A DNA stretch of 64,000 nucleotides, taken from positions 4,592,501 through 4,656,500 of the forward strand of contig NZ_CP117435.1 of the NCBI RefSeq assembly GCF_030687495.1, in the 5' to 3' direction. Below are positions 1 through 13,282 of the stretch, in pieces. The position numbers and the translations under genes are program-made. The notes under the pieces were generated by a model, which was given only the letters and a program-made list of their open reading frames with translations, searched no databases and was not told the DNA's origin. Source of the stretch: Pseudomonas sp. FP453 (GTDB lineage: Bacteria > Pseudomonadota > Gammaproteobacteria > Pseudomonadales > Pseudomonadaceae). Position 1 is the first letter of the stretch, and the number at the start of each line of letters is the position of its first letter.

Positions 1-915
1 TTCGATAATCATCGCTTGCTTGGCCAATTCGCTGACTTCAGCGTCGGTCAGGCAGAAACGCGCGCGATCAGCCTTGTCGACGTCAACGGTTTTCACCGAA
101 CGGCCGGCCTTGGCTTCGTCGCCGTAGATCATCTTGATGGCCTTGCTGCCCAGGTTACGGCGCAGGATGGCCGGGCGACCGGCTTCAAGGGTGTGCTTGT
201 GGACGTAGAATTCGTCCGGGTTGACCGCGCCTTGTACGACGGTTTCCCCCAGGCCGTAGGCTCCGGTGATAAACACCACGTCACGGAAGCCCGATTCGGT
301 ATCGAGGGTGAACATGACGCCGGCGGTGCCGGTTTCCGAACGCACCATGCGCTGCACGCCGGCAGACAGGGCTACCAGCTTGTGGTCGAAACCTTGGTGT
401 ACACGGTAGGAAATTGCGCGATCGTTGAACAGCGAGGCGAACACTTCCTTGGCCGCGCGGATCACGTTCTCCACGCCACGGATGTTCAGGAAGGTTTCTT
501 GCTGACCGGCGAAGGAGGCGTCCGGCAAGTCTTCGGCGGTGGCCGAGGAACGTACGGCGACGGCCACGTCCGGGTTGCCGGCCGACAGTTCGGCGAAGGC
601 GGTGCGGATTTCTTCGTTGAGCTTCTCGGGGAACTCGGCGTCCATGATCCATTGGCGGATCTGGCTGCCGGTCTTGGCCAGGGCGTTGACGTCATCGACG
701 TCCAGTGCGTCCAGCGCGGCGTGGATCTGAGCGTTGAGGCCGCTCAGTTCGAGGAAATCGCGGTAAGCCTGGGCCGTGGTGGCAAAACCACCCGGCACCG
801 AAACACCAGCGCCTGCAAGATTACTGATCATCTCGCCGAGGGATGCGTTCTTGCCCCCCACGTGCTCTACATCATGGACGCCGAGCTTATCGAGGGAAAC
901 TACGTACTCTACCAA
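1..915 (-). CDS. ppsA: Phosphoenolpyruvate synthase, N-terminal part (cut by window edge)
   Basis: Converts pyruvate, ATP and water to phosphoenolpyruvate, AMP and phosphate, the gluconeogenic entry step from pyruvate in the cytoplasm. Only the first 305 codons are present of a protein usually near 790 residues, so the central phosphohistidine domain and the C-terminal PEP-binding barrel lie outside the window. What is visible is the ATP-grasp-like pyruvate phosphate dikinase N-terminal domain, beginning [11 protein letters not shown] and carrying [11 protein letters not shown]. The start is a TTG at 913-915 with GGAGAGA just upstream; no better-placed ATG keeps the conserved N-terminus. It is divergent from ppsR, the kinase/phosphorylase that switches this enzyme, a pairing common in Pseudomonas. 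Family call is strong; the start codon is slightly less certain. Confidence 0.95.
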
Positions 916-1093
916 GGTGATCTCTCCACTAACTGTGTTGGAAAAGCTCAGGACGCCGGCTGCTCAGTAGGAGCTTTCGCCAGCGCTTGTGGCCTGGACC
1001 TGGAAAATAAGTGAGAATGCGGCCCACTGCGGGACGGCAAAATCGCGCCTATCATATCCAAGATTCGTCATCAGCTTAAGGCCCAGGGCTCAA

Positions 1094-1912
1094 ATGAAAC
1101 GATCTGCTTTCTTTATCTCCGACGGCACCGGCATCACCGCCGAAACATTGGGTCAAAGCCTGTTGGCGCAGTTCGAAAACATTACCTTCGCCAAATTCAC
1201 GCGGCCTTATATCGACAGCGTGGATAAAGCGCGGGCCATGGTACAACAAATCAATCTGGCGGCTGAAAAAGACGGCTTTCGGCCGATCATTTTCGACACC
1301 ATTGTCAATCAGGACATTCGTGAGATCCTCGCGACTTCCAATGGTTTCATGATCGACATCTTCTCGACGTTCCTTGCGCCACTGGAACAAGAGCTGAGTG
1401 AACACTCCTCATACTCGGTAGGAAAGTCCCATTCCATTGGGCACAACTCCAACTATATGGAGCGTATCGAGGCGGTGAACTTCGCCCTCGACAACGACGA
1501 CGGCGCCCGCACGCACTACTACGACAAGGCCGACCTGATCCTGGTGGGCGTGTCCCGCTGCGGCAAGACGCCCACCTGCCTCTACATGGCCATGCAGTTC
1601 GGCATCCGCGCGGCCAACTACCCGCTGACCGAGGACGACATGGAGCACCTGACGCTGCCTGCGGCCCTGCGCTCGCACCGCCACAAGTTGTTCGGCCTGA
1701 CCATCGACCCGGACCGCCTTACCTCGATCCGCAACGAGCGCAAGCCCAATAGCCGCTATTCCAGCTACGCGCAGTGCGAGTTCGAAGTGCGTGAAGTGGA
1801 AAATCTGTTCCGTCGCGAGAATATTGCGCATATCAATTCCACCCACTTTTCGGTGGAGGAGATTTCCGCGAAGATTTTGGTGGAGAAGGGTGTGGAGCGT
1901 CGGTTCAAGTAG
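1094..1912 (+). CDS. ppsR: PEP synthase regulatory protein (kinase/pyrophosphorylase, DUF299)
   Basis: Bifunctional serine/threonine kinase and phosphotransferase that inactivates PEP synthase by ADP-dependent phosphorylation and reactivates it by phosphate-dependent pyrophosphorylation. The 272-residue product has the usual family length, the conserved N-terminus [18 protein letters not shown] and the P-loop GVSRCGKTP in its second half. I chose the ATG at 1094 because the family N-terminus begins there; the reading frame is open further upstream to 989, but the extra residues look like intergenic sequence. It diverges from ppsA across about 180 bases that must hold both promoters. The coupling to ppsA supports control of gluconeogenic carbon flow. 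Confidence 0.95.
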
Positions 1913-1930
1913 TTGTGTCGTCTGGGCTGG

Positions 1931-2008
1931 CCTCTTCGCGGGCAAGCCCGCTCCCACAGTTGACTGCATTTACACATCAACATGTGGGAGCTGGCTTGCC
2001 TGCGATGA
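1931..2008. repeat. REP element pair (inverted)
   Basis: Two short palindromic units in opposite orientation: CGCGGGCAAGCCCGCTCCCAC on the left and its related form GTGGGAGCTGGCTTGCCTGC on the right, separated by about 25 bases. Each can fold into a hairpin and the pair can form a larger cruciform. It lies between the convergent ends of ppsR and the MocR gene. This is the first of many copies in the window. Confidence 0.85.
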
Positions 2009-2029
2009 ACGATAACGCGGTAAACCTGC

Positions 2030-3454
2030 CTACAACTGAAACCGCCCTCCACCCTGCCCCAGCGCCGTCGCCAACGCATCAAACCCCGCCAACAACAGCT
2101 GGTCATCCCCCGATGTATTGCAGACACTCGCCCGAATAAACTGCGGCACCGCCGTCTGCCCTACGGCAAACGCCTCGGCCGTGGCGATCAGGTAATTATT
2201 CTGCTTGAGCTCCGCCTCGATTTCCGACGCGCGCCACGGTTCCGGGACTTCGATCCAGAAGTGCGGGCTGTTGAGGTGCGTGCGGTACTCAAGCCCGGCC
2301 AACACCCCCTCGACCAGGGTTTTGCGGCGACTGATCTCGTTGATCTGCTGACGCAACAGGTATTCCGCAGTGCCGTTTTCGATCCACTGTGTCGCCAGTT
2401 CCAGCGTCACCGGCGTGGCCATCCAGCAGGTCGAGCGCAGCGCCGCCGAAATACGGCTGACCAGCGCCGGCGGTGCGTGCACATACCCCACACGTAACCC
2501 GGCCGACACCGCCTTGCTCAGACTGCTGATCAAAATCGTACGCTCGGGCGCGAAGTGACTGAGGGGCGGTGGACGATCTTCCACCAACACGCCGTGGGCC
2601 TCGTCTTCGAGAATCAGCAGGTTGTGTTCCCGGCAGACCCGGGCCAATGCCTCCCGGCGCGAAATCGACAGGACCGCCGTCGTCGGGTTCTGAATGGTCG
2701 GCGTGCAATACAACGCCGAAACCCGGTGGTTACGACAGACTTCTTCCAGCGCACTCGGCAGCACGCCCTCTTCGTCCATCTCCAGGCCGATCAGGCGCAC
2801 GCCAAGCATACGGGCTGCGGTGATCAAGCCCGGGTACGTCAATTGTTCGGTGACCACCGTATCGCCAGCGCGCAGCAACGCCATCATCGCGCAGAGCAAA
2901 CCGTGCTGGCCGCGGTTGACGCAGATGACCTGCTCGGGAATCGGATGAAAGTCACGCTGTACCAGCCATTGCGCGCCGGCTTCGCGGTAACGCGGCAGGC
3001 CGGCATCGGGTGTGTACGCACTGATGTCCTGAAGGAACTTGGCGTTGGTCGCCAGGGTTTGCAGGCTCTGGGAAAGAAAGGCCGTCTCTTGCCCGGGGAT
3101 ATGCATGTTGCGGCTCATGTCGAAGAACTGGCGCGGCTCCTCGCTGAAGTTGCGAAAACCTTCATCACGTTGGCGCTCCATCCCACGCTTGCGCACGAAA
3201 GTGCCGTCACCCACCCGCGCCACCACCAAGCCCAGGCGTTCCAGTTCGCCGTAGGCCCGGCTGATGGTGCCGATGGTCACCCCAAGATTGTCGGAAAGCA
3301 CCCGATGGGGCGGTAGCTTTCGTCCTGGTTCAATCAGCCCTTCGAGGATGCCCCGTTCCATGACATCGGACAGGCGCTTGTACTTCACGCCCTGCCCGCT
3401 GGACAACCCCTCACGCATAATTGACACCATGTCAATATTTGTTTTGACAGCCAT
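2030..3454 (-). CDS. MocR/PdxR-type transcriptional regulator (GntR wHTH fused to aminotransferase-like domain)
   Basis: A 474-residue regulator with a GntR winged helix at about residues 20-90 (PGRKLPPHRVLSDNLGVTIGTISRAY region) followed by a fold-type I aminotransferase-like domain. The PLP-binding lysine is recognisable in SSLSKAVSAGLRVGY. Members of this family sense PLP or PLP-amino acid adducts and usually control a divergent amino-acid, vitamin B6 or transport gene. It is transcribed away from the EamA transporter and the sulfur-transfer operon, so it is the obvious candidate regulator of that operon. Three copies of GTTCAAT lie in the shared intergenic region. ATG at 3454 has AGGG seven bases upstream. 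The effector is unknown; an amino acid made or exported by the operon is a reasonable guess. Confidence 0.88.
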   Translation of the reverse strand: MAVKTNIDMVSIMREGLSSGQGVKYKRLSDVMERGILEGLIEPGRKLPPHRVLSDNLGVTIGTISRAYGELERLGLVVARVGDGTFVRKRGMERQRDEGFRNFSEEPRQFFDMSRNMHIPGQETAFLSQSLQTLATNAKFLQDISAYTPDAGLPRYREAGAQWLVQRDFHPIPEQVICVNRGQHGLLCAMMALLRAGDTVVTEQLTYPGLITAARMLGVRLIGLEMDEEGVLPSALEEVCRNHRVSALYCTPTIQNPTTAVLSISRREALARVCREHNLLILEDEAHGVLVEDRPPPLSHFAPERTILISSLSKAVSAGLRVGYVHAPPALVSRISAALRSTCWMATPVTLELATQWIENGTAEYLLRQQINEISRRKTLVEGVLAGLEYRTHLNSPHFWIEVPEPWRASEIEAELKQNNYLIATAEAFAVGQTAVPQFIRASVCNTSGDDQLLLAGFDALATALGQGGGRFQL

Positions 3455-3482
3455 CTTTCGCCCTAATAGTGTGCTTTTACGG

Positions 3483-3533
3483 GTTCAATCGCCGAATTTA
3501 ATAACTCATTACAAGTTCAATATAGAGTTCAAT
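3483..3533. promoter_or_regulatory. Candidate MocR operator: three GTTCAAT direct repeats
   Basis: GTTCAAT occurs at 3483-3489, 3515-3521 and 3527-3533, all in the same orientation, within the 103-base divergent region between the MocR regulator and the EamA transporter. The last two are 12 bases apart start to start and sit in the longer repeat AGTTCAAT. MocR proteins such as GabR bind directly repeated half-sites, so the arrangement suits the neighbouring regulator. Binding is inferred. Confidence 0.5.
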
Positions 3534-3557
3534 TCCGGCTCAGGGAAGTAATAAACG

Positions 3558-4508
3558 ATGCCAATGTCCGCCGTTCTCGAAAACGCTGAAAAAACCAAAT
3601 CCCAGAAACAGTGGTTGGCCGGCCTGGTCACCAGCCTGATGTTTCTCATCGTGTGCCTGAGCTGGGGCACCACCTGGCTGGGGATCAAGATTGCCGTGGA
3701 GAGCGTGCCGCCGCTGACGTCCGCGGGCCTGCGCTTCCTGATCGCCTTCCCGCTGTTCCTGTGTTTTGCCATGGTGCGCCGCGAGCCGATCCTGTTCCCC
3801 CGGGAAAGCCGCTGGTTCTTTGTGTTCGTGACCCTCTCCTACTTCAGCGTTCCCTATTACCTGCTCAACTACGGCGAGATGCATGTGTCATCCGGCCTGA
3901 CCGCCCTGCTGTTCAGTTGCATGCCGGTGTTCATCCTGATTTTCTCCGCGCTGTTCCTGCGCGAGCGCATCTACTTCTCCCAGGTGGTCGGCATCGGTAT
4001 CGGTTTCGGCAGCCTCTACATGATCATCAAGAGCCAGGGCCTGCACCTGGACCACGCCGAGTTCTTCGGGGTGCTGGCGATTCTGACCGCCGCGATCATG
4101 CATGCCTTGTGCTACGTCATTACCAAGCAAAAAGGCAGCGCCATCAGCGTGATCACCTACAACACCCTGCCCATCGGCATTGCCGGGCTGATGCTGTTCG
4201 TGGCCGGGCTGTGGTTTGAAACCCCCAGCTTCGACAGCATCACCCTGCGCTCCTGGAGTGCGCTGTTCTACCTCGGGCTGGTCGCCTCGGTCGGTGGCTT
4301 CATCGTGTACTTCATGCTGCTCAAGCGCCTGAGCCCGATCATCCTGTCGTTCGTGTTCATCATCTTCCCGGTGTTCGCGGTGATCATCGGCGCCTGGTAC
4401 GAAGGCGTGGCGATTTCCCGCGACCTGATGCTGTATTCGGCCATCCTGCTGGCCGGTTTTGCGATCACCAAGTTGCCGGTTGAAAAACTCCTGGCCAAGA
4501 AAAAATGA
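3558..4508 (+). CDS. EamA/DMT-family inner-membrane transporter
   Basis: A 316-residue integral membrane protein with about ten hydrophobic helices arranged as two EamA repeats, the normal architecture of drug/metabolite transporters. Signature segments are LSWGTTWLGIKIAVESVPP near helix 1 and GLRFLIAFPLFL in helix 2. Some family members export cysteine or O-acetylserine (E. coli EamA/YdeD), which fits the downstream serine acetyltransferase and cysteine synthase-like genes, but substrate cannot be read from the sequence. ATG at 3558 follows AGGGAAG. The stop overlaps an in-frame ATG (ATGA at 4505) upstream of the next gene, so translation of the two is probably coupled. First gene of the candidate sulfur-transfer operon under the divergent MocR regulator. 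Confidence 0.88.
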   Translation: MPMSAVLENAEKTKSQKQWLAGLVTSLMFLIVCLSWGTTWLGIKIAVESVPPLTSAGLRFLIAFPLFLCFAMVRREPILFPRESRWFFVFVTLSYFSVPYYLLNYGEMHVSSGLTALLFSCMPVFILIFSALFLRERIYFSQVVGIGIGFGSLYMIIKSQGLHLDHAEFFGVLAILTAAIMHALCYVITKQKGSAISVITYNTLPIGIAGLMLFVAGLWFETPSFDSITLRSWSALFYLGLVASVGGFIVYFMLLKRLSPIILSFVFIIFPVFAVIIGAWYEGVAISRDLMLYSAILLAGFAITKLPVEKLLAKKK

Positions 4509-4531
4509 CTTTCAACAGACGCGAGAGAAAC

Positions 4532-6394
4532 ATGGACGTCCTCCGCCCCAACGCCCTGGAACAGATCTACGCCCACGCCAGCCGCAGCTATCCTGAGGAA
4601 TGCTGTGGGTTCGTCTTCGCCGACGGCAGTGTGCACCTGGGCAGCAATATCCAGAACGAGCTGCACCGCAAGAACCCCGAGATCTACCCGCGCACCGCCG
4701 CCAACGGCTACACCTTCTCGGTGGCCGACACCCTGCTGCTGAACAAAGCGTTTCGCGGCGACAACCCGGTGGTGGTGATCTACCACTCCCACCCCGACGT
4801 CGGCGCCTACTTCAGTGACGAAGACCAGGACAAGGCGCTGTTCATGGGCGAACCGATCTTCCCCGTGAGCTACCTGGTGGTCGATGTTCGCCAGGGCCAG
4901 GCCCTGAGTTCAAAGCTGTTTGCCTGGGATGGCAAGCATTTCGCCCTTAACCCTTTCAACGACCTGCACACGGAGTTGTCCATGAACGCTGTCTCTTTCC
5001 CCGACATTCTGGTTCGCGTGGCCAAGCTGCCGGAATCGACCCTTGAGGGCACCGGATCGACATTGCGCGAAGTCATTGAAAACCTCTGCGAAAGCCACCC
5101 GCAATTGCGCCCGCATCTGTTCCACGAAAAGAACAACCAGCTCAAGGAACACTTCCTGTTTACCGCCGAGGAAGAGCTGATCGGCGCCGACGATCCACTC
5201 CCCGGGAAAGCCCGGATCGAAGTGTTGCTCGCCACGTCCGGCGGCATGGATGTGGAGACGTTGAGCAATGAAGAAGTGCAACGTTATGTGCGCCATATCA
5301 CCCTGCCGGGCGTCGGCCGCGAAGGCCAGTTGAACCTGAAGAAAGCCAAGGTGCTGATCATCGGCACCGGCGGCCTGGGCTCGCCCATCAGCCTCTACCT
5401 GGCGGCGGCCGGCATCGGCACCCTGGGCCTGGTGGATTTCGACGTGGTGGAAAGCAGCAACCTGCAACGCCAGATCGTCCACGGCAACAGCACATTGGGC
5501 ATGCCCAAGGTCGAGTCCGCCAGGCAGCGCCTGCAGGACCTCAACCGCCATATCCAGATCAACGCCCACGACACCGCCCTGAATGCCGACAACGCCCTCG
5601 AGCTGGTCGGCGCCTACGACCTGGTGATCGACGGCACCGACAATTTCGACACCCGCTACCTGGTCAACGACGCCTGCGTCCAGCTGGGCAAACCCTTGGT
5701 GTACGGCGCCATCTACCGTTTCGACGGGCAGATCAGCGTGCTCAACTATAAAGGTGGGCCGTGCTACCGCTGCCTGTTTCCCCAGGCGCCGCCCGCTGAG
5801 CTGGCACCCAATTGCAGCGCCGGCGGGGTCATCGGCGTGCTGCCCGGCGTGGTCGGGATGATCCAGGCCACCGAGGCGATCAAGTTGCTCATCGGCATCG
5901 GCGACCCCCTGTCTGGCCGCCTGATGCGCTTCGATGCGCTGGCAATGAAATTCAGCGAGATCCGCTTCAAGCGCCGCGCCGACTGCCCGTGCTGCTCGGA
6001 GCTGCGCCACAGCGCAAGCCAGGCACCAGCGGTGTGGGCCGACGCAGTGCCGAGCACGCCGTCGCTGGCCGCAGAACGCTACATCAAGCCGCGCGTGCTC
6101 AAGCAACTGCTCGAACACCCGCGCAGCGCCGACGTACTGCTGGACGTGCGCGACGCCAGCGAGCTGGAAGTGTGCAAATTGCCCGGCGTGGTGCACATCC
6201 CCTTGGCCGAGCTGGATGGACAACTCGACAGCCTCAGCCGCGACAACACCCACTACCTGATCTGTTATGCCGGCACCCGCGCCGAGCAAGCGGCCACCAC
6301 CCTGCTGGCGGCCGGTTTCGCCAACACCAAAGTGCTGCAGGGCGGCATGAAGCATTGGGTGCGCGACGTCGAACCCGACATGCCTTTGTATTGA
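4532..6394 (+). CDS. Four-domain fusion: JAMM metalloprotease - ubiquitin-like sulfur carrier - E1/ThiF adenylyltransferase - rhodanese
   Basis: A 620-residue protein combining a complete thiocarboxylate system. Residues 1-145 are a JAMM/Mov34 deubiquitinase-like domain with Glu in PEECCGF and the full metal motif HSHPDVGAYFSDED (H86, H88, S95, D98). Residues 151-238 are a ThiS/MoaD-like beta-grasp carrier ending in the diagnostic di-glycine ATSGG (G237-G238), here internal. Residues 239-490 are a MoeB/ThiF-type E1 with IIGTGGLGSP, NLQRQ, candidate catalytic Cys in APNCSAGG (C428) and zinc pairs CYRC and CPCC. Residues 515-620 are a rhodanese with active loop CYAGTR (C578). Met151 and Met239 lie exactly at the domain joins, as if three genes fused; GGAG precedes the codon of Met151. 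In known systems such as QbsCDE and mycobacterial CysO-CysM-Mec these parts are mostly separate proteins. Activation should load sulfur on the carrier C-terminus, but here G238 must first be freed, perhaps by the JAMM domain itself. Start 4532 is preferred over 4505. Confidence 0.9.
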   Translation: MDVLRPNALEQIYAHASRSYPEECCGFVFADGSVHLGSNIQNELHRKNPEIYPRTAANGYTFSVADTLLLNKAFRGDNPVVVIYHSHPDVGAYFSDEDQDKALFMGEPIFPVSYLVVDVRQGQALSSKLFAWDGKHFALNPFNDLHTELSMNAVSFPDILVRVAKLPESTLEGTGSTLREVIENLCESHPQLRPHLFHEKNNQLKEHFLFTAEEELIGADDPLPGKARIEVLLATSGGMDVETLSNEEVQRYVRHITLPGVGREGQLNLKKAKVLIIGTGGLGSPISLYLAAAGIGTLGLVDFDVVESSNLQRQIVHGNSTLGMPKVESARQRLQDLNRHIQINAHDTALNADNALELVGAYDLVIDGTDNFDTRYLVNDACVQLGKPLVYGAIYRFDGQISVLNYKGGPCYRCLFPQAPPAELAPNCSAGGVIGVLPGVVGMIQATEAIKLLIGIGDPLSGRLMRFDALAMKFSEIRFKRRADCPCCSELRHSASQAPAVWADAVPSTPSLAAERYIKPRVLKQLLEHPRSADVLLDVRDASELEVCKLPGVVHIPLAELDGQLDSLSRDNTHYLICYAGTRAEQAATTLLAAGFANTKVLQGGMKHWVRDVEPDMPLY

Positions 6395-6409
6395 GCCGGG
6401 GGCTGACTG

Positions 6410-7324
6410 ATGCTGCATAACTCCATTCTCGACGTCATCGGCCATACGCCGATCGTACGTCTGGCGCAGTTTTCCGAAGACCTCGGCATCGAGGTCTACG
6501 CCAAGCTCGAATCCCTCAACCCTGGCGGCAGCCACAAGGCGCGTATCGCCCTGGGCATGATCCTCGACGCCGAGCGCCGTGGCGTGCTGATCCGTGACGC
6601 CGGGCAAACCATCATCGAGCCCAGCGGCGGCAACACCGGCATTGGCCTGGTGATGGCGGGCAACGTGCTGGGCTACAAAGTGGTGCTGGTGATCCCCGAC
6701 AACTACAGCCCCGAAAAGCAGAAGCTGCTGCGCCTCTACGGCGCCAAGGTGGTGCTGTCAGACAGCCGCCTCGGTAACAATTCCCACGGCGAAAAGTGCC
6801 TGGAACTGCAACTGGAAAACCCCAGCTACGTGATGCTCAACCAGCAACGCAATGGCGCCAACCCGCAAACCCACCGCGACACCACCGCACCCGAGATCCT
6901 GCGCGCTTTTGGTGAGCGGCGCGTGGACTACTTCGTCAGCGGCATCGGCACCGGTGGCCACATCACCGGCATCGGCGAAACCCTCAAGGCCGCCTGGCCG
7001 GAGCTGCGCGTCATGGGCGTGGAGCCGGAAGAGTGCGACCTGCTGAAAAACCAGCACGCGCCGCACCATATCCAGGGCCTGTCGATCGGCCTGATCCCCA
7101 GCATCCTCAACCTGGATGTGCTGGACGGCATGCTCAAGGTGTCGCGCCAGGAGTGCATCGACATGATGAAACGCATCATGCGCACGGATGCCATCAGCCT
7201 GGGCCTGTCCTCGGCCGCCAACATGGTGGCCATTGCCAAGCTCGCCCCGGAGCTGCCCACCGAAACAGTGGTACTGACCATGGTCTACGACAATGCCGAC
7301 AGCTACCTGCCCAGTTTCGAATAA
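6410..7324 (+). CDS. PLP-dependent cysteine synthase-like enzyme (CysK/CysM family)
   Basis: A 304-residue fold-type II PLP enzyme that in this family replaces the acetyl or phosphate group of an activated serine with a sulfur nucleophile. Visible are the PLP lysine in NPGGSHKARIA (K43), the substrate loop EPSGGNTGIG (70-79) and the phosphate-binding loop GIGTGGHITG (178-187). The lysine context is K-A-R rather than the usual K-D-R. Fifteen bases separate it from the fusion gene, so one operon is likely. Mycobacterial CysM uses a protein thiocarboxylate on CysO as sulfur donor, and the neighbouring ubiquitin-like/E1/JAMM fusion makes the same logic likely here: carrier thiocarboxylate plus O-acetylserine gives a carrier-cysteine adduct that JAMM would cleave. 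A different product amino acid is possible. Housekeeping cysM/cysK are expected elsewhere. Confidence 0.88.
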   Translation: MLHNSILDVIGHTPIVRLAQFSEDLGIEVYAKLESLNPGGSHKARIALGMILDAERRGVLIRDAGQTIIEPSGGNTGIGLVMAGNVLGYKVVLVIPDNYSPEKQKLLRLYGAKVVLSDSRLGNNSHGEKCLELQLENPSYVMLNQQRNGANPQTHRDTTAPEILRAFGERRVDYFVSGIGTGGHITGIGETLKAAWPELRVMGVEPEECDLLKNQHAPHHIQGLSIGLIPSILNLDVLDGMLKVSRQECIDMMKRIMRTDAISLGLSSAANMVAIAKLAPELPTETVVLTMVYDNADSYLPSFE

Positions 7325-7361
7325 GCGGTTTCCCAACCATCCAGAATGCGGGGGTGCCTCC

Positions 7362-8354
7362 ATGGGGGGGTTTATTGACATGCAACAGCTGCACGATGAG
7401 TTGCTCACGCACCTCATCAAGACCCTGACGCCTGCGCAGATGAAGCAACTGGAACCGCACCTGGCGCCCTTGGTGCAGAACGCCGCCCAGGCCGTGGCCG
7501 AAGACTTGATCGCCTACGCCTACCGTGATCCCGCCTCGCGTGGCCGGGGTGAGCTGATCCTGGAGTCCTACGCCTCGTTCAAGGCGGTGCTGTTCTACCG
7601 CCTGGCGCATTTGGTGTGGAACTTCCCCGACCAGGTCAACGGCGTGTTTTCGCGCATGGCCCTCAAGCTCAGCAACCAGGGCAAGATCCTCTCCGGCGCC
7701 GAGATCCACCCGGCGGCGCGTATCGGCCGGCGCTTTGTGCTGGACCACGGCTACGGCACGGTGATCGGCGAGACCTGCGAGATCGGCAACGACTGCTACA
7801 TCCTCTGCGGCGTGACCCTGGGTGCCCGTGGCATCGCCAATAACCCGGACGGCAAGCGCCACCCGCGCCTGGGCAACAACGTCGAGATCGGCTCCGGCGC
7901 GCGGGTGCTGGGCTATGTGCTGATCGGCGACAACGTGTTCATCAGCCCATCCTGCGTGATCACCCAGGACGTGCCCGCAGGCACCAAGGTCAAGGTGGTC
8001 AACCAGGTGCAACTGCAAAAAAACGACGAGTCCGAGCACAGCAATTACCTCGGCGCCTTCGCCCTCGACGAGCGCCTGCACGTGGTCGGCGAAATCAACG
8101 CCAACCACAAGGTCACGGTGCTCGACGCCGACTTTCACCCCTTGCAGGGCCTGATGCTGGAGCCGACGGTGAAAGAGCGCCACCACCTGCAATTTCGCCT
8201 GCACCGCATTGAAGCCGATAGCCACCTGCCGCGCCTGCCACTGAACCTGAAGGTCTGCGGCCCGGAATTTGAAATCACCCTGCTTTCCCCCCCTGGCTTG
8301 AGTGCAATGGTGCGTCATCTGTTGCAAACCAGCCCTTTGAACGTCGGAGGTTGA
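7362..8354 (+). CDS. Serine O-acetyltransferase-like protein with additional C-terminal domain
   Basis: A 330-residue protein whose centre (about 113-215) is a left-handed beta-helix acetyltransferase with the serine acetyltransferase signature DHGYGTVIGET (D128, H129) and GKRHPRLG (H167). The N-terminal helical part (to about 110) matches the EpsC/SrpH type. It should make O-acetylserine from serine and acetyl-CoA, the substrate of the adjacent cysteine synthase-like enzyme. Unusual is an extension of about 100 residues after the beta-helix (roughly 228-330), which I do not recognise. Start is ATG 7362 after GGGGGTG; ATG 7380 after seven G residues is an equally possible start, five residues of coding difference plus one. 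The stop is two bases from the AlaX start with GGAGG inside this gene's end, indicating an operon. Confidence 0.85.
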   Translation: MGGFIDMQQLHDELLTHLIKTLTPAQMKQLEPHLAPLVQNAAQAVAEDLIAYAYRDPASRGRGELILESYASFKAVLFYRLAHLVWNFPDQVNGVFSRMALKLSNQGKILSGAEIHPAARIGRRFVLDHGYGTVIGETCEIGNDCYILCGVTLGARGIANNPDGKRHPRLGNNVEIGSGARVLGYVLIGDNVFISPSCVITQDVPAGTKVKVVNQVQLQKNDESEHSNYLGAFALDERLHVVGEINANHKVTVLDADFHPLQGLMLEPTVKERHHLQFRLHRIEADSHLPRLPLNLKVCGPEFEITLLSPPGLSAMVRHLLQTSPLNVGG

Positions 8355-8356
8355 AC

Positions 8357-9085
8357 ATGTCCGTGCACACCATGGAAACCCTGGCGCTGTTCGACAGCGC
8401 GCCCTACCAGAATGCGTTCAGCGCGCGGGTCATCGCCGTCAGCGAACACGGCATCGCCCTGGAGCACACGCTGTTCTACCCCACGGGCGGCGGGCAACCG
8501 GGCGACACCGGGCACTTCACCCTGGCCGATGGCACGCGGGTCGAGGTCGTCGGCACCGTGCGCGACCCGGTGCTGCGCTCGATCATCTGGCACCAGGTGG
8601 AACACTGCCCCGAACAATTGACCTCGGGCGTGCAGGTTGACGCCGGCCTCGATTGGGAGCGGCGCTACCAGCACATGAAGATGCACACCTGCCTGCACCT
8701 GTTGTGCTCGATCATCGACGCCCCTGTGACCGGTTGCAGCATCAGCGCCGACAAAGGTCGCCTGGATTTCGACCTGCCGGAAATGACCCTCGACAAGGAC
8801 AGCATCACCCGCGACCTCAATGCGCTGATCGAACAGGCCCACACGGTGAAGGCCCTGTCGATGCCCGCCTCGGAGTATTCGACCCTGCTGCAAATCACCC
8901 GCACCCAGGCGGTTGCGCCGCCGGTGGTGCAAGGCTCGGTGCGCATCATCGAGATTGCCGGGGTGGATATCCAGCCGTGCGGCGGCACCCATGTGATCAA
9001 CACCGAGGAAATCGGCCGGGTGTTCTGCGAGAAGATCGAGAAGAAGAGCAAGCACAACCGCCGGGTCATCCTGCGTTTTGAATAA
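8357..9085 (+). CDS. AlaX-type trans-acting aminoacyl-tRNA editing protein
   Basis: A 242-residue free-standing relative of the alanyl-tRNA synthetase editing domain. It has the glycine-rich motif PTGGGQPGDTG (42-52) of the longer AlaX forms, the zinc motif HTCLH (H110, H114) and the second zinc motif CGGTH (C208, H212). AlaX proteins hydrolyse Ser-tRNA(Ala) or Gly-tRNA(Ala). Its location as last gene of a serine-activation and sulfur-transfer operon is unexpected: it may protect the cell against tRNA mischarged by serine, cysteine or an unusual amino acid made by the pathway. ATG 8357 has GGAGG six bases upstream. Function class is firm; the link to the pathway is inference. Confidence 0.85.
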   Translation: MSVHTMETLALFDSAPYQNAFSARVIAVSEHGIALEHTLFYPTGGGQPGDTGHFTLADGTRVEVVGTVRDPVLRSIIWHQVEHCPEQLTSGVQVDAGLDWERRYQHMKMHTCLHLLCSIIDAPVTGCSISADKGRLDFDLPEMTLDKDSITRDLNALIEQAHTVKALSMPASEYSTLLQITRTQAVAPPVVQGSVRIIEIAGVDIQPCGGTHVINTEEIGRVFCEKIEKKSKHNRRVILRFE

Positions 9086-9092
9086 CCCTCAA

Positions 9093-9124
9093 GCGCCTGG
9101 GGCGCCAATGCCCCAGCCGCTTTT
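9093..9124 (+). terminator. Rho-independent terminator candidate after the AlaX gene
   Basis: Stem CTGGGGC (9097-9103) and GCCCCAG (9110-9116) with a six-base loop, extended by an outer GCG/CGC pair and followed by TTTT. It lies just after the AlaX stop codon, so the ABC transporter genes downstream are probably a separate transcript with a promoter in 9125-9322. Confidence 0.6.
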
Positions 9125-9322
9125 CGTACAGCGAACTGACAGGAAATTTATCCGCTTGTAACATTCAGAAACGTATCATCCCACCAGCAGCCATCGTCCT
9201 GATGCGCGGCTACTTGAACCTCCAGGAAAGCACACCCGCCCGTTCCCGGAGGGTCTTTCGTACAGAAGCCATGCTCACCCCATCGCCGCCCCTGAACCTG
9301 AACGCAGCAGGAATGACTGCCT

Positions 9323-11069
9323 ATGAATAAAGTGCTCCGTCACTACATACCAGCCTCCACCTTGCGCTTGCTGCCCAATCGCTGGGACCTGTGTCGCCCT
9401 GCCGTTGGTGATCGGCTTTCTGCTGTTTTTTTCCATCACCGCACGGGAAACCTGGGCGCCCATCGACACGTTGCAGAGTGAGGTCATCTCCCTCGACCCG
9501 GCCAACCTGCCGGAATACGCCATGCGCACCACCCTGCGCATGCTCGCGGCGATGGTGGCGGCGCTGGTGTTCACCTTCCTCTACGGCACCCTCGCGGCAA
9601 AAAGCCGGCGCGCCGAAAAACTCCTGGTGCCGGTGCTCGACATCCTGCAATCGGTGCCGGTACTCGGTTACATCTCGTTTACCGTGACCTTCTTCCTGCT
9701 GCTGTTTCCCGGCCGTGTGCTCGGCGCCGAGTGTGCGGCGATCTTTGCGATCTTCACCAGCCAGGCCTGGAACATGACGTTCAGCTTCTACCAGTCGCTG
9801 CGCATGTTGCCCCATGACCTGGTGGAAGTGTCCACCAACCTGCGGCTGTCGGGCTGGCAACGTTTCTGGAAGCTCGACGTGCCCTTCGCCATGCCCGGCC
9901 TGGTGTGGAACATGATGATGAGCATGTCCGGCGGCTGGTTTTTTGTGGTCGCTTCCGAGGCCATCACCGTCGGCGACAAGACCATCACTTTGCCCGGCGT
10001 GGGTTCGTACCTGGCCCTGGCCATCGCGCAGAAAGACCTGCATGCGGTGGGGTACGTGATCCTCGCGATGATCGCGGTGATCCTGATCTACGACCAGTTC
10101 CTGTTCCGCCCGCTGGTGGCCTGGGCCGACAAATTCCGCATGGAAACCACCGCTTCCCAGGGCGCCGCGCCGCAATCCTGGGTGTTGAACCTGATCCAAC
10201 GCACGCGCATGGTCCAGCGCATCCTGCGCCCCATCACCCGCAGCATCAGCCGTATCGGCAACAAACGCTTCAGCCTGGCCGGTGGTGCGCTCAAGGCGCT
10301 GCCGAGCGAATCACCGGCAGCCTCCAAGGTGATCGATTGGGTCTGGGGCACGTTGATTGCCGTGCTCACCGCCTACGCGCTGTACCACATCGTGATGTAC
10401 GTCGGCACCGAAGTGACCTTCGCCGAGGTCGGCCATGTGTTCGTGCTCGGCTTGATCACCCTGATGCGTGTGACGGGCCTGATCCTGATCGCCTCGCTGA
10501 TCTGGGTGCCGCTGGGGGTGATGATCGGCCTGCGCCCGCGCCTGGCGCAAAAGATCCAGCCCGTGGCGCAGTTCCTCGCGGCGTTCCCGGCAAACCTGCT
10601 GTTCCCGGTGTTTGTCATCGTGATCCTGCACTACCACCTCAACCCGGACATCTGGCTCAGCCCGCTGATCGTGCTCGGCACCCAGTGGTACATCCTGTTC
10701 AACGTGGTGGCCGGTGCCAGTGCGTTTCCCAATGACTACAAGGAAGCCGCCGCCAACTTCCGCATTCGCGGCTGGTTGTGGTGGCGCAAGGTGATGCTGC
10801 CGGGGATTTTCCCCTATTACGTCACCGGCGCGATTACCGCCTCCGGTGGTGCGTGGAACGCCAGCATCGTTTCCGAGTACGTGTCCTGGGGCCAGGACAA
10901 CGTGGTCGCCCACGGCCTCGGCGCCTACATCGCACAAACCACCGCTGCCGGCGACTTCCCGAAGATCGCCCTGGGCGTGGTGGTGATGTCGATCTTTGTG
11001 GTGGCCTTCAACCGCGCGGTCTGGCGCCCGATGTACGCCCTGGCGGAAAACAAACTGCGTCTGAATTGA
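9323..11069 (+). CDS. NitT/TauT-family ABC transporter permease, two fused permease units (5' frame break)
   Basis: Membrane component of an importer-type ABC system. The open frame from about 9327 to 11069 encodes two permease modules in tandem, each with several helices and an EAA-like loop: one around EVSTNLRLSGWQRFWKLD and one around EAAANFRIRGWLWWRKVM. The natural N-terminus (MNKVLRHYIPAS..., ATG 9323 with AGGAATG upstream) is in a different frame and joins the rest by one base at about 9390-9392, where ...GACCTG(T)GTCGCC... would read through if one T were absent. Expected length is then about 581 residues. Without repair, the first in-frame starts are TTG 9405 and GTG 9408, neither with a ribosome site. 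Either a recent mutation or a sequence error. No periplasmic binding protein is next to it; the ATPase follows by 15 bases. Relatives import sulfonates, nitrate or bicarbonate. Confidence 0.8.
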
Positions 11070-11084
11070 GGGGGATGCACCCAG

Positions 11085-12407
11085 ATGACTACCACGACCG
11101 AACACACCGCCGACACCCCGCAAATCTATTCGCTGAAAAATGTGAACCGGGTGTTCGGCAAAGGCAAAGATGAACTGCACGTGCTCAGCGGCGTCGACCT
11201 GAGCCTGCACGAAGGCGAGATCGTCGGCATGCTCGGGCGCTCCGGCTCCGGCAAATCCACCCTGCTGCGCATCATTGCCGGGCTGATCCAGCCGTCATCA
11301 GGCGAGGTGCGTTACCACGGCGTGCCACTGACCGGCCCGGCCGAAGGCGTGGCCATGGTGTTCCAGACCTTCGCCCTGTTCCCCTGGCTGACCGTGCTGG
11401 AAAACGTCGAAGCAGGCCTGCAAGCCTTACAGGTCGAACGCAAAGAAACCCGCCGCCGCGCCCTGGCCGCCATCGACCTGATCGGCCTCGACGGTTTTGA
11501 AAACGCCTACCCCCGCGAGCTGTCCGGCGGCATGCGCCAGCGCGTCGGGTTTGCCCGTGGCCTGGTGGTCAACCCGACCCTGCTGCTGATGGACGAACCC
11601 TTCTCCGCCCTCGACGTGCTCACCGCCGAAACCCTGCGCACCGACTTGCTGGACCTGTGGAGTGGCAAGCAACTGCCGATCAAGTCGATCCTGATCGTGA
11701 CTCACAACATCGAAGAAGCGGTGCTGATGTGCGACCGCATCCTCGTGCTGTCCTCCAACCCCGGCCGTGTGGTCGCCGAGATCAAGGTGCCGTTTGCCCA
11801 CCCGCGCAACCGGCTGGACCCGACCTTCCGGCAAATGGTCGATGACATCTATGCGCTGATGACCGACCGGCGCAGCGCCGATGCCAGCGCCGGCAAGCCC
11901 GAGCTGAAAATGAGCAGCCTGCTGCCGGAAGTCTCCACCAACCTGATGGCCGGCCTGATCGAAACCCTGGCCGCCGAGCCCTACAACGGCCACGCCGGCT
12001 TGCCCACCGTGGCCGAGCGGCGCTTGCTGGAAGTCGATGACCTGTTTCCCGTGGCGGAAATGCTCGAGCACCTGGGCTTCGCCGAACTCAAGGGCGCCGA
12101 CATCACCCTCACCGACGCCGGCAAGTTGTTTGCCGACTATGGCACCCAGGAACGCAAGACCCTGTTCGCCGAGCACCTGATCCAGCATGTGCCGTTGGCC
12201 GCGCGCATTCACCAGGTGCTGCTCGAACGCAGCGGGCACCGCGCGCCACGGGTGCGTTTCGAGCAGGAGCTGGAGGACTCGATGACCGAGGCCTTCGTCG
12301 AAAAAACCCTGGAAAGCGTGGTGGCGTGGGGACGGTATGCGGAGATTTTCTCGTATGACGACCATACCGAGACATTCAGCCTGGAAGATGTTGAAGGCAG
12401 CCTGTAA
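11085..12407 (+). CDS. NitT/TauT-family ABC transporter ATPase with C-terminal AAA-associated domain
   Basis: The 440-residue ATPase partner of the preceding permease. Residues 1-260 form the nucleotide-binding domain: Walker A GRSGSGKST, Q-loop VFQTFALFPWL, signature LSGGMRQR, Walker B LLLMDEP and switch His in VTHNIEEA. The remaining ~170 residues are an extra C-terminal domain of the kind seen on a subset of nitrate/taurine-type ATPases (AAA-associated domain). RBS GAGGGGGATG precedes the ATG. Together with the double permease this would be a two-gene transporter whose binding protein is encoded elsewhere. A sulfur compound is an attractive substrate given the neighbouring operon, but this is not shown by the sequence. 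Confidence 0.88.
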   Translation: MTTTTEHTADTPQIYSLKNVNRVFGKGKDELHVLSGVDLSLHEGEIVGMLGRSGSGKSTLLRIIAGLIQPSSGEVRYHGVPLTGPAEGVAMVFQTFALFPWLTVLENVEAGLQALQVERKETRRRALAAIDLIGLDGFENAYPRELSGGMRQRVGFARGLVVNPTLLLMDEPFSALDVLTAETLRTDLLDLWSGKQLPIKSILIVTHNIEEAVLMCDRILVLSSNPGRVVAEIKVPFAHPRNRLDPTFRQMVDDIYALMTDRRSADASAGKPELKMSSLLPEVSTNLMAGLIETLAAEPYNGHAGLPTVAERRLLEVDDLFPVAEMLEHLGFAELKGADITLTDAGKLFADYGTQERKTLFAEHLIQHVPLAARIHQVLLERSGHRAPRVRFEQELEDSMTEAFVEKTLESVVAWGRYAEIFSYDDHTETFSLEDVEGSL

Positions 12408-12440
12408 GCCCTTCGCGTTGAATGAACCACACCTAAAGAA

Positions 12441-12462
12441 ATGTGGGAGCTGGCTCCCACAT
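12441..12462. repeat. Collapsed REP palindrome
   Basis: A near-minimal REP unit in which GTGGGAGC and GCTCCCAC are separated by only two bases, giving a perfect hairpin. It looks like a REP pair that has lost its centre. No T-run follows, so it is not an obvious terminator. Confidence 0.65.
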
Positions 12463-12583
12463 TGACTGTAGCGTTGCCCACCTGAAAAACACGATCACAA
12501 GCCTTGTTGACTGGCGATGGCTCCCCCGCGCTTGAGCGCCCGGTTCAACACACGCCGCGTGAAGGTGCGGGCGGGCTGTTGGG

Positions 12584-13111
12584 TTAAGCGCTGAGACCGT
12601 CGAAGAACTGGTCGATTTTGCGCAGCATCACCTCTCTGTCCTGGTGCCCGAACCGATCATCCAACGCACTCAAGCGTGAGAGCGGCGTCGGGCTGTGTTG
12701 TACAGACCTGACATCGCCGACGAACGAGTCAACGTTGCCCGCTATCACCTCTCTGTCCGGGAGTCTGACCCCCTCATTCAACCCACTCAAGCGTGAGAGC
12801 GGCGTCGGGCTGTTGGGTACAGCCCTGATATCGACGGCCAGCTGGCCTACGCCATCGTGCATCAGGCTACCTCCCCGTGGGGTGGACCCGTCGACGCGAG
12901 ACAGCGGCATTGGGTTTTGCAAACCCGCATGGGTTGCAAACAGCCCGCGCGGTAGTGACGCCATCGTCCCCTGAGGCAGCGCTGGACCTGACACAGTCAT
13001 GTGCCCGGAGCGGGCCTGGGCACTGTCTGCGTACCGGATGGGCGCAGGGGGCGCAGACAATTCAAAACTGGCGTAGTGAGGCGCATAAGCCTGTGGATGT
13101 GTGCAAATCAT
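12584..13111 (-). CDS. Hypothetical protein with tandem ~39-residue repeats; candidate HrpL-regulated secreted protein
   Basis: I do not recognise this 175-residue protein. Its C-terminal two thirds consist of about three repeats of roughly 39 residues, each with a core like SPTPLSRLS followed by a DREV segment; the last two are near-identical at the DNA level, the first (NPMPLSRVD) is degenerate. The N-terminal 50 residues are rich in Ser, Ala, Pro and lack acidic residues in the first 16, with no signal peptide or membrane helix. Start ATG 13111 has AGAGGT seven bases upstream. A GGAACC-N15-CCAATCA element lies 80 bases upstream, resembling a HrpL promoter. The combination suggests a type III secreted effector or helper; no secretion genes are in the window. 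The gene stands alone between unrelated operons. Confidence 0.65.
   Translation of the reverse strand: MICTHPQAYAPHYASFELSAPPAPIRYADSAQARSGHMTVSGPALPQGTMASLPRGLFATHAGLQNPMPLSRVDGSTPRGGSLMHDGVGQLAVDIRAVPNSPTPLSRLSGLNEGVRLPDREVIAGNVDSFVGDVRSVQHSPTPLSRLSALDDRFGHQDREVMLRKIDQFFDGLSA
12627..12813. repeat. Direct repeats, 117-bp period, within the repeat-protein gene
   Basis: Two units offset by exactly 117 bases. ATCACCTCTCTGTCC occurs at 12627 and 12744, and a 30-base identical stretch occurs at 12667-12696 and 12784-12813 (core AAGCGTGAGAGCGGCGTC). The period equals 39 codons, so the repeat expands or contracts the protein in frame. Confidence 0.9.
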
Positions 13112-13158
13112 TGAAGTACCTCTTCAGATTCAAGGTTTAGCTCGGGGAGCACTTGGCG

Positions 13159-13182
13159 GGCGACCGGTAACCACCGGTCGCC
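13159..13182. other. Perfect 10-bp hairpin in the leader of the repeat-protein gene
   Basis: GGCGACCGGT at 13159-13168 and ACCGGTCGCC at 13173-13182 are exact inverted repeats around the loop AACC. It sits between the candidate HrpL promoter and the start codon, near the expected 5' end of the transcript. No T-run follows on either strand. It may stabilise the transcript, bind a regulator or end transcription from prpD. Confidence 0.7.
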
Positions 13183-13190
13183 TGACTATC

Positions 13191-13218
13191 TGATTGGCAT
13201 TTATCCGAAAACGGTTCC
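13191..13218 (-). promoter_or_regulatory. Candidate HrpL (type III secretion sigma factor) promoter
   Basis: On the minus strand GGAACC is followed after exactly 15 bases by CCAATCA. The HrpL consensus is GGAACC-N15/16-CCACNNA, so all six bases of the first box and four of the five fixed bases of the second match. It is about 80 bases upstream of the start codon of the repeat protein. The call rests on this match alone. Confidence 0.5.
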
Positions 13219-13282
13219 GCAAATGTAGGAAGCGCGAACCGCCGAGTCTTCAGGCTTCAAGCCTGGCCCTTGCGCAGGCTGT

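What the first reader, a model, noticed from the sequence alone, without database searches (positions are those of the whole stretch)
4532..6394. One polypeptide holds a whole ubiquitin-like sulfur-transfer system: JAMM + carrier + E1 + rhodanese
Seen directly: complete JAMM motif (H86-x-H88-x6-S95-x2-D98), a beta-grasp carrier ending in internal G237-G238, a ThiF/MoeB E1 with zinc cysteines and a rhodanese with CYAGTR. Met151 and Met239 lie exactly at the domain junctions and GGAG precedes the first, so the gene looks like a fusion of formerly separate genes or may allow internal starts. In known thiocarboxylate systems the carrier must have a free C-terminal GG; here it is followed by MDVET. 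So either the JAMM domain cleaves after G238 to release a JAMM-carrier piece, or internal initiation at 5246 yields a separate E1-rhodanese and leaves the carrier at the end of a truncated product. Related fusions may have been noted in surveys of prokaryotic ubiquitin-like systems; I know of no functional study.
Basis: partly seen in the sequence, partly recalled or inferred. Interest (0 to 1): 0.92.

Follow-up and report, generated by a model that had tools for sequence, protein, structure and literature searches.

The report
Four-in-one sulfur-carrier gene with inner start
A group of Pseudomonas bacteria has merged a sulfur-carrier protein, the enzyme that loads it and a protease that probably frees it into one gene, which seems to have kept the old starting point of its second half so that two proteins can be made from it.

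Summary
One 620-codon frame holds JAMM, a beta-grasp carrier with internal GG, MoeB-type E1 and rhodanese, in a conserved operon with EamA, CysK-like, CysE-like and AlaX genes. The JAMM fusion is derived: 92 of 92 unique intact fused genes form one clade whose sister genes are split into JAMM and carrier-E1-rhodanese. The carrier-E1 join is older: 16 of 16 named split loci have it. Met151 is the start codon of the once separate gene. Its ribosome-binding site and start are the most synonymously constrained stretch of the gene (4 changes, about 90 expected), so it is probably still used and the gene makes two nested products. Met239 is a coincidence (Ile in 25 of 92; Leu in 9 of 10 split proteins aligned). 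G237-G238 are 92 of 92, and published JAMM enzymes cut linear carrier fusions after GG, so cleavage after G238 is the likely activation step, not shown here. Split operons are in print (Iyer 2006, row 4c; apparently P. aeruginosa PA2100-PA2106). Nine literature searches showed me no report of the four-domain fusion or its inner start.

The parts
4532..6394 (+). fused gene JAMM-carrier-E1-rhodanese, 620 aa (an in-frame ATG also at 4505)
   Evidence: 63 intact single-frame homologues among 398 same-genus genomes
4532..4951 (+). JAMM/MPN+ domain (Prok-JAB, residues about 1-140); E23, H85, H87, S95, D98
   Evidence: residues invariant in 92 of 92
4961..4990 (+). codons 144-153, strongest synonymous constraint in the gene; holds the inner ribosome-binding site and start
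   Evidence: 4 synonymous changes, 89.6 expected, 0 of 20000 column permutations reach it; 4 against 61.3
4972..4975 (+). GGAG, inner Shine-Dalgarno motif, 6 nt before ATG 4982
   Evidence: invariant in 63 of 63; same motif before the separate gene in L068/L167 and L168
4982..6394 (+). nested product carrier-E1-rhodanese, 470 aa, from the inner start Met151
   Evidence: M151 92 of 92; start codon of the separate gene in split relatives
4982..5245 (+). beta-grasp sulfur-carrier domain (residues 151-238), CysO/SAMP1-like fold
5051..5080 (+). codons 174-183, second synonymously constrained stretch, cause unknown
   Evidence: 8 synonymous changes, 95.4 expected
5240..5245 (+). G237-G238, internal diglycine, predicted cleavage point
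   Evidence: 92 of 92 fused, 10 of 10 split
5246..6031 (+). MoeB/ThiF-type E1 with CYRC and CPCC zinc motifs (residues about 239-500)
6095..6364 (+). rhodanese domain, CYAGTR loop
2030..3454 (-). MocR-type regulator, divergent
   Evidence: at the same place in 80 of 80 loci
3558..4508 (+). EamA-family transporter
   Evidence: 80 of 80 loci
6410..7324 (+). CysK-like PLP enzyme with changed active-site motifs (GGSHKAR, EPSGGNTG)
   Evidence: 80 of 80 loci
7293..8354 (+). CysE-like serine acetyltransferase (start uncertain)
   Evidence: found in 80 of 80 loci, on the other strand in L183
8351..9085 (+). AlaX-type alanyl-tRNA editing protein (ATG at 8357)
   Evidence: 79 of 80 loci

Best explanation
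It is a sulfur-carrier gene of the JAMM / carrier / E1-rhodanese / cysteine-synthase operon kind, in which the JAMM gene has fused in frame to an older carrier-E1-rhodanese gene. The mRNA is probably read from two starts: the first gives the 620-residue protein, the inner start at 4982 the 470-residue carrier-E1-rhodanese. In both the carrier is capped by the E1 that should load it. The JAMM domain (in cis or on a neighbouring molecule) cuts after G238 and frees the carrier's GG carboxylate; E1 adenylates it; the rhodanese brings the sulfur; the thiocarboxylate hands sulfur to the aminoacrylate made by the CysK-like enzyme from the CysE-like enzyme's product; JAMM may also release the amino acid from the carrier, as Mec does for CysO. 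Product: cysteine or a related amino acid, exported by the EamA protein. Shown by sequence: the fusion, its single origin, the split relatives, the invariant catalytic and GG residues, the constraint at the inner start. Inferred: use of the inner start (about 0.8), cleavage after G238 (about 0.65), hand-over to the CysK-like enzyme (about 0.6).
For: Inner start: codons 144-153 carry 4 synonymous changes where 89.6 are expected in 92 unique intact fused CDS, the lowest 10-codon window of the gene, 0 of 20000 permutations (63-CDS version 4 against 61.3, 1 of 20000). What varies there is the spacer (-2) and -13, while GGAG and ATG are 63 of 63. By base variation (-15..+20, 61 loci) it is as conserved as the EamA start (0.018 and 0.019) and more than the AlaX (0.036), JAMM (0.102) and CysK (0.132) starts. 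From +1 to +30 it is 97% identical to the separate start in L068 and L168, against 69-77% in the next 100 bases. No same-strand overlapping frame explains it: frames +1 and +2 hold stops in 92 and 91 of 92; no promoter-like site, no Rfam family. Local folding is weak for this gene. Cleavage: ATSGG invariant in 13 of 13 carriers down to 31% identity; the next residue is M, I, L or T; JAMM residues 92 of 92. Published: DRJAMM cuts the MoaD-MoaE linear fusion and leaves a C-terminal Gly (PMC8832034, passages); MoaX must be cut at Gly82-Ser83 to work (PMC4326299, abstract and passages); capped carriers need a protease such as QbsD (PMC6006322, passage). Pathway: CysK-like, CysE-like genes in 80 of 80 loci; CysO pathway described in PMC3227635 (passages).
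Against: No expression, mass-spectrometric or enzymatic data. The constraint (ratio 0.045) is far stronger than at a coding-embedded native ribosome-binding site used as control (AlaX site in the CysE 3' end: lowest window of that gene, but 0.55), so something more than a start may be selected; a second constrained stretch in codons 174-183 is unexplained. The predicted ensemble pairs the inner GGAG most of the time (mean unpaired probability 0.25; AUG 0.47). Another in-frame ATG (Met105) also has an AAGG upstream. The CysK-like enzyme has altered active-site motifs (GGSHKAR, EPSGGNTG), so its substrate may differ. The E1 is of the two-CXXC MoeBR type, whereas in mycobacteria MoeZR and not MoeBR loads CysO (PMC3227635). 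The full-length model is poor (pLDDT 65.8, low at 139-149 and 233-260), so geometry says nothing. Reported N-acetylcysteine induction of PA2100-PA2103 (PMC9431628) does not fit a simple cysteine-starvation role.
Confidence: 0.5

Rival explanations
1. The constraint around Met151 is not a translation start but another regulatory RNA or DNA element (small-RNA or protein site, long-range hairpin); only the full-length protein is made and JAMM processes it in cis.
For: Constraint is stronger than at the control ribosome-binding site. A second constrained stretch (codons 174-183) can pair with the first over 22 positions. Predicted occlusion of GGAG.
Against: The same DNA is a separate gene's start in the sister split genes. 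Hairpin: shuffles as good in 10-12%, whole region folds worse than most shuffles (z +1.38, 186 of 200), duplex energy ranks 3861st of 9200 window pairs, no compensating changes.
Confidence: 0.2
2. The embedded carrier is never freed; it is a regulatory or docking domain of the E1, and the E1-rhodanese loads another carrier of the cell, for example the free one with VAGG end encoded elsewhere in the genome.
For: A free carrier gene with its own JAMM and E1-rhodanese exists in the same genome. The carrier-E1 join is stable in 16 of 16 named split loci.
Against: ATSGG is among the most conserved parts of the carrier and a docking domain would not need a diglycine; a JAMM is always next to or fused with it in the 80 loci (selected by JAMM). 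JAMM cleavage of linear carrier fusions has precedents (PMC8832034, PMC4326299).
Confidence: 0.2
3. A protein-modification system: the carrier is conjugated to lysines and JAMM removes it, as Iyer et al. proposed in general for E1-JAB pairs.
For: JAMM with E1 and carrier; Iyer 2006 section 16 suggests E1-mediated transfer (PMC1779556, section read).
Against: Rhodanese fused to E1 and CysK/CysE in every locus point to sulfur transfer; the same paper says E1 enzymes of the E2-type clusters never carry a rhodanese. I saw no E2-like gene among the neighbours scanned.
Confidence: 0.07
4. The operon makes or exports a toxic non-protein amino acid, AlaX being self-protection against mischarged tRNA.
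For: EamA exporter, AlaX and a CysK-like enzyme with changed motifs are linked in 79 of 80 loci; nearest solved structure by sequence is O-ureido-L-serine synthase, E 2.2e-67, though ordinary cysteine synthases follow at once.
Against: No chemistry known; AlaX could simply remove Ser from tRNA-Ala when serine or O-acetylserine is high. My one literature search on this listed nothing specific.
Confidence: 0.3

Closest known systems
Iyer, Burroughs and Aravind 2006 operon class 4c (PMC1779556; sections 12, 16 and table passages read)
   Same: ThiS/MoaD-like carrier, E1 fused to rhodanese, JAB protease and cysteine synthase together; listed for P. aeruginosa and R. palustris
   Different: The passages I read treat JAB and carrier of this class as standalone genes; here carrier is joined to E1 and JAMM to both, with an inner start
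P. aeruginosa PA2100-PA2106 (PMC9431628, PMC9866376, PMC13256707; passages seen)
   Same: Reported names and order (MocR-type MdrR2, EamA, Mov34/MPN, MoeB, cysteine synthase, acetyltransferase, AlaS-domain hydrolase) match this operon
   Different: JAMM (PA2102) and MoeB (PA2103) are separate genes; I did not examine their sequences
CysO-CysM-Mec cysteine pathway of Mycobacterium (PMC3227635, passages)
   Same: CysO-like carrier fold, JAMM, CysK/M-type enzyme, E1-rhodanese
   Different: Carrier is free there; E1 is MoeZR type (NYRD) there and two-CXXC type here; here CysE and AlaX are included
MoaD-MoaE linear fusions: MoaX (PMC4326299) and DR2607 cut by DRJAMM (PMC8832034)
   Same: Carrier GG buried in a linear fusion and freed by cleavage; JAMM does it in Deinococcus
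   Different: There the partner is the sulfur user MoaE; here it is the loading E1, and the protease is on the same chain
QbsE/QbsD of thioquinolobactin (PMC6006322 passage; details recalled)
   Same: Carrier capped after GG, JAMM uncaps it
   Different: The cap is a few residues there (recalled for QbsE), a whole E1-rhodanese here

Membership tests
Iyer 2006 class 4c operon | JAB/JAMM protease with metal motif | tested here: met
Iyer 2006 class 4c operon | ThiS/MoaD-like carrier | tested here: met
   Pfam ThiS just under cut-off, fold match to CysO/SAMP1
Iyer 2006 class 4c operon | E1 fused to a rhodanese | tested here: met
Iyer 2006 class 4c operon | cysteine synthase in the operon | tested here: met
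CysO-CysM-Mec pathway | E1 of MoeZR type (NYRD, no second CXXC) | tested here: not met
   CYRC and CPCC invariant in 92 of 92 and 10 of 10; distinction from PMC3227635
CysO-CysM-Mec pathway | free carrier with C-terminal GG as encoded | tested here: not met
   GG internal
CysO-CysM-Mec pathway | carrier thiocarboxylate accepted by the cysteine synthase, adduct released by JAMM | not testable with these tools
   no assay
JAMM-processed linear carrier fusion | internal GG between carrier and partner | tested here: met
JAMM-processed linear carrier fusion | cleavage after the second Gly by JAMM | not testable with these tools
   no assay
gene with retained internal translation start | Shine-Dalgarno and start conserved beyond protein need | tested here: met
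gene with retained internal translation start | shorter product present in cells | not testable with these tools
   no proteome data
bacterial ubiquitin-like conjugation / defence systems | E2-like partner, no rhodanese on E1 | tested here: not met
   rhodanese present; no E2-like gene among the eight neighbours scanned; PADLOC not run

The most novel reading that the evidence does not exclude
One gene encodes two nested forms of a self-contained sulfur-carrier system: a full-length form that carries its own activating protease, and a protease-free form made from an inner start that has been kept almost base for base since two genes fused. The carrier stays inactive as an N-terminal cap on its own E1 until JAMM cuts after G238, so the ratio of the two starts sets how much carrier is released. 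The two constrained RNA stretches form a dedicated control element for that ratio.
Probability: 0.3. Interest if true: 0.8.

Novelty: new variant of a known kind. Interest (0 to 1): 0.62.

Why it matters
If true, it gives a compact one-gene test of an old question for JAMM-linked sulfur carriers: is the protease there to mature the carrier, to release the product, or both? It also shows a route by which gene fusion keeps separate expression: the upstream stop is lost but the old ribosome-binding site survives inside the coding sequence under very strong silent-site constraint. The operon is found in many fluorescens-group pseudomonads and, in split form, apparently in P. aeruginosa, and the product is unknown.

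Tried and rejected
Met239 as inner start: rejected. Long-range hairpin hiding the inner ribosome-binding site: its two arms are exactly the two constrained stretches, but shuffles do as well in 10-12%, the region folds worse than shuffles, duplex energy is unremarkable and the split relatives do not show it; left as an idea. Overlapping same-strand frame: rejected; one antisense frame is open in 77 of 92 but not in 15. Internal sigma-70 promoter: none found. Repeats linking the constrained stretches to the upstream region: nothing relevant. Rfam: no hit in window 1-14000. Full-length structure model: too poor to judge geometry, so no fold search was made with it. Protein-database search: not available. 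Rows dropped before counts: CDS with internal stops and exact duplicates (from 76 plus 66 spans to 92 unique intact); frame-broken fused genes L066, L071, L142, L147, L151 are not in the 92.

Full report
What is there. Window 4532-6394 is one open frame of 620 codons (the mechanical ORF starts at 4505). Pfam finds Prok-JAB, ThiF and rhodanese above their cut-offs; the carrier between JAMM and E1 scores just under the ThiS cut-off when scanned alone. A profile of 13 carriers matches the ThiS/MoaD protein of 4n6e (E 9.5e-5), and its predicted structure (pLDDT 90.5) matches SAMP1, BexX/CysO and Mycobacterium CysO. The JAMM profile matches a Mov34/MPN/PAD-1 structure (2kcq, E 1.3e-9).

Operon. Upstream is a divergent MocR-type regulator and an EamA transporter; downstream a CysK-like enzyme, a CysE-like acetyltransferase and an AlaX-type editing protein. 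In 80 named loci from the single genome-contig scan, the regulator, EamA, fusion or its parts, CysK-like and CysE-like genes were found in 80 and AlaX in 79; in L183 (Paraburkholderia) AlaX is missing from the stretch held and CysE lies on the other strand. The ABC genes that follow in the window are present in only part of the loci. These 80 are the best of at least 542 JAMM relatives, so they oversample the window's own clade.

Fused and split forms. Among 398 same-genus genomes, 65 have JAMM and carrier in one frame and 5 have them separate; 63 of the 65 are intact to the end, one (L066) is broken just after the carrier and one (L071) in the E1-rhodanese part. Among the 80 named loci 61 are fused and intact, 3 fused but frame-broken (L142, L147, L151), and 16 split. 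Outside the genus, one of 369 class-level genomes (G099) had the split operon, itself with a frame change within E1, and a phylum draw of 398 gave 6 hits, all of the same genus. Named split examples include P. alcaligenes, P. otitidis, P. nitroreducens, P. indica, Vreelandella boliviensis and Paraburkholderia ultramafica. In all 16 named split loci the carrier is joined to E1-rhodanese and JAMM is the separate gene. On a tree of 104 carrier-E1-rhodanese proteins the 92 fused ones form one clade (support 0.836) with split L068 and L168 as sister (0.995). So JAMM joined once; the carrier-E1 join is older.

The inner start. In split genes the carrier-E1 gene begins at the residue equal to Met151, with GGAG or AGGAG-like bases before it. 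In fused genes that stretch is nearly frozen. Parsimony counts on 92 unique intact fused genes give 4 synonymous changes in codons 144-153 where 89.6 are expected from the gene's average for the same residues; none of 20000 column permutations has a window as low. With 63 genes the figures were 4 and 61.3, 1 of 20000. GGAG and ATG never vary in 63; spacer base -2 and base -13 do. Variation over -15..+20 in 61 loci equals that of the EamA start and is below the AlaX, JAMM and CysK starts. The first 30 bases are 97% identical to the sister split genes, while the following 100 bases are 69-77%. Time since fusion is not the reason: the gene as a whole shows 6048 synonymous changes.

Against a simple reading: the one control I made inside another coding sequence (AlaX's site at the CysE end, 64 genes) gives the lowest window of that gene but only a ratio of 0.55, so 0.045 is more than a ribosome-binding site seems to need; the computed ensemble leaves GGAG unpaired only 25% of the time; and codons 174-183 form a second constrained stretch (8 against 95.4). 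The two stretches can pair, but not better than 10-12% of shuffles, and the whole region is less structured than shuffles.

Met239. Residue 239 is Met in 67 and Ile in 25 of 92. In split proteins aligned it is Leu in 9 of 10 and Ile in L068; in L025 it is Thr. No GGAG-like motif precedes it. It is not a relic start.

The diglycine. A-T-S-G-G is invariant in 13 of 13 carriers, the most distant 31% identical, while the next residue varies. This is what one expects if the tail must end free. Published precedents: the MoaX fusion of M. tuberculosis is inactive until cut between Gly82 and Ser83 (PMC4326299, abstract and passages); DRJAMM cuts the MoaD-MoaE fusion of Deinococcus and leaves a C-terminal Gly, and is described as essential for activating it (PMC8832034, passages); carriers with capped ends typically need a protease, as QbsD in thioquinolobactin synthesis (PMC6006322, passage). 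Here protease and cap sit on the same chain. Whether JAMM acts in cis or in trans is open; in the split relatives it must act in trans.

Pathway. By analogy with CysO-CysM-Mec (PMC3227635, passages) the loaded carrier would feed the CysK-like enzyme. But it is not simply that pathway: the E1 has the two CXXC motifs of MoeBR, and that paper reports that MoeZR and not MoeBR loads CysO. The same genome holds, at G000:C1 near 4.885 Mb, a conventional set: E1-rhodanese with NYRD, separate JAMM, and separate carrier ending VAGG, beside a family III CoA-transferase. The CysK-like enzyme has GGS-H-K in 80 of 80 and EPSGGNTG in 80 of 80 loci where PDB cysteine synthases aligned show GGSxKDR/GGSVKDR and TSGNTG-like loops, so its substrate may not be the usual one.

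Literature. Iyer et al. 2006 (sections 12 and 16 read, plus passages and tables) list operons with carrier, E1-rhodanese, JAB and cysteine synthase in P. aeruginosa and R. palustris (row 4c). The P. aeruginosa genes appear to be PA2100-PA2106: names and order in PMC9431628 (up-regulated by N-acetylcysteine), PMC9866376 (RpoH paper, table row) and PMC13256707 (PA2105 next to PA2104) agree with this operon; I did not compare sequences. Nine searches of open-licence papers listed no report of the four-domain protein or an inner start; subscription papers and supplements were not searched.

Verdict. Real, well conserved, a new variant of a known operon kind. The strongest new point is the preserved inner start; the strongest untested point is cleavage after G238.

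Noticed in passing
window 5051-5080 (codons 174-183): Second stretch of very strong synonymous constraint inside the carrier: 8 changes against 95.4 expected in 92 genes. Cause unknown.
   Followed up: partly
L037 5039-6998 (own genome, G000:C1 about 4.885 Mb): Conventional three-gene set in the same genome: free carrier ending VAGG, JAMM, E1-rhodanese of NYRD type, next to a family III CoA-transferase and a class III aminotransferase protein; resembles Iyer class 4a.
   Followed up: partly
L038 6541-7296 (own genome, G000:C1 about 4.077 Mb): Protein with a JAMM-like N-terminus among what look like phage tail and portal genes; probably a prophage tail-tip protein; not scanned.
   Followed up: no
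L066 about 9201 (G544): In one single-contig genome the frame is broken directly at the carrier's GG, leaving a JAMM-carrier frame ending SGERA; E1-rhodanese follows in another frame. Decay or error not decided.
   Followed up: partly
L071/L151, L142, L147: Three further fused genes with frame breaks at other places (L071 and L151 appear to be the same assembly).
   Followed up: no
window 6410-7324: CysK-like enzyme keeps GGSHK and EPSGGNTG in 80 of 80 loci, unlike the cysteine synthases it was aligned with; possibly a different nucleophile or substrate.
   Followed up: partly
window 8351-9085: An AlaX-type tRNA editing gene belongs to the operon in 79 of 80 loci; why a sulfur-transfer operon needs it is unclear.
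   Followed up: no
window 4968-4977: ACACGGAGTT around the inner Shine-Dalgarno resembles the RsmA/CsrA target consensus as I recall it (A-N-GGA core); not tested.
   Followed up: no
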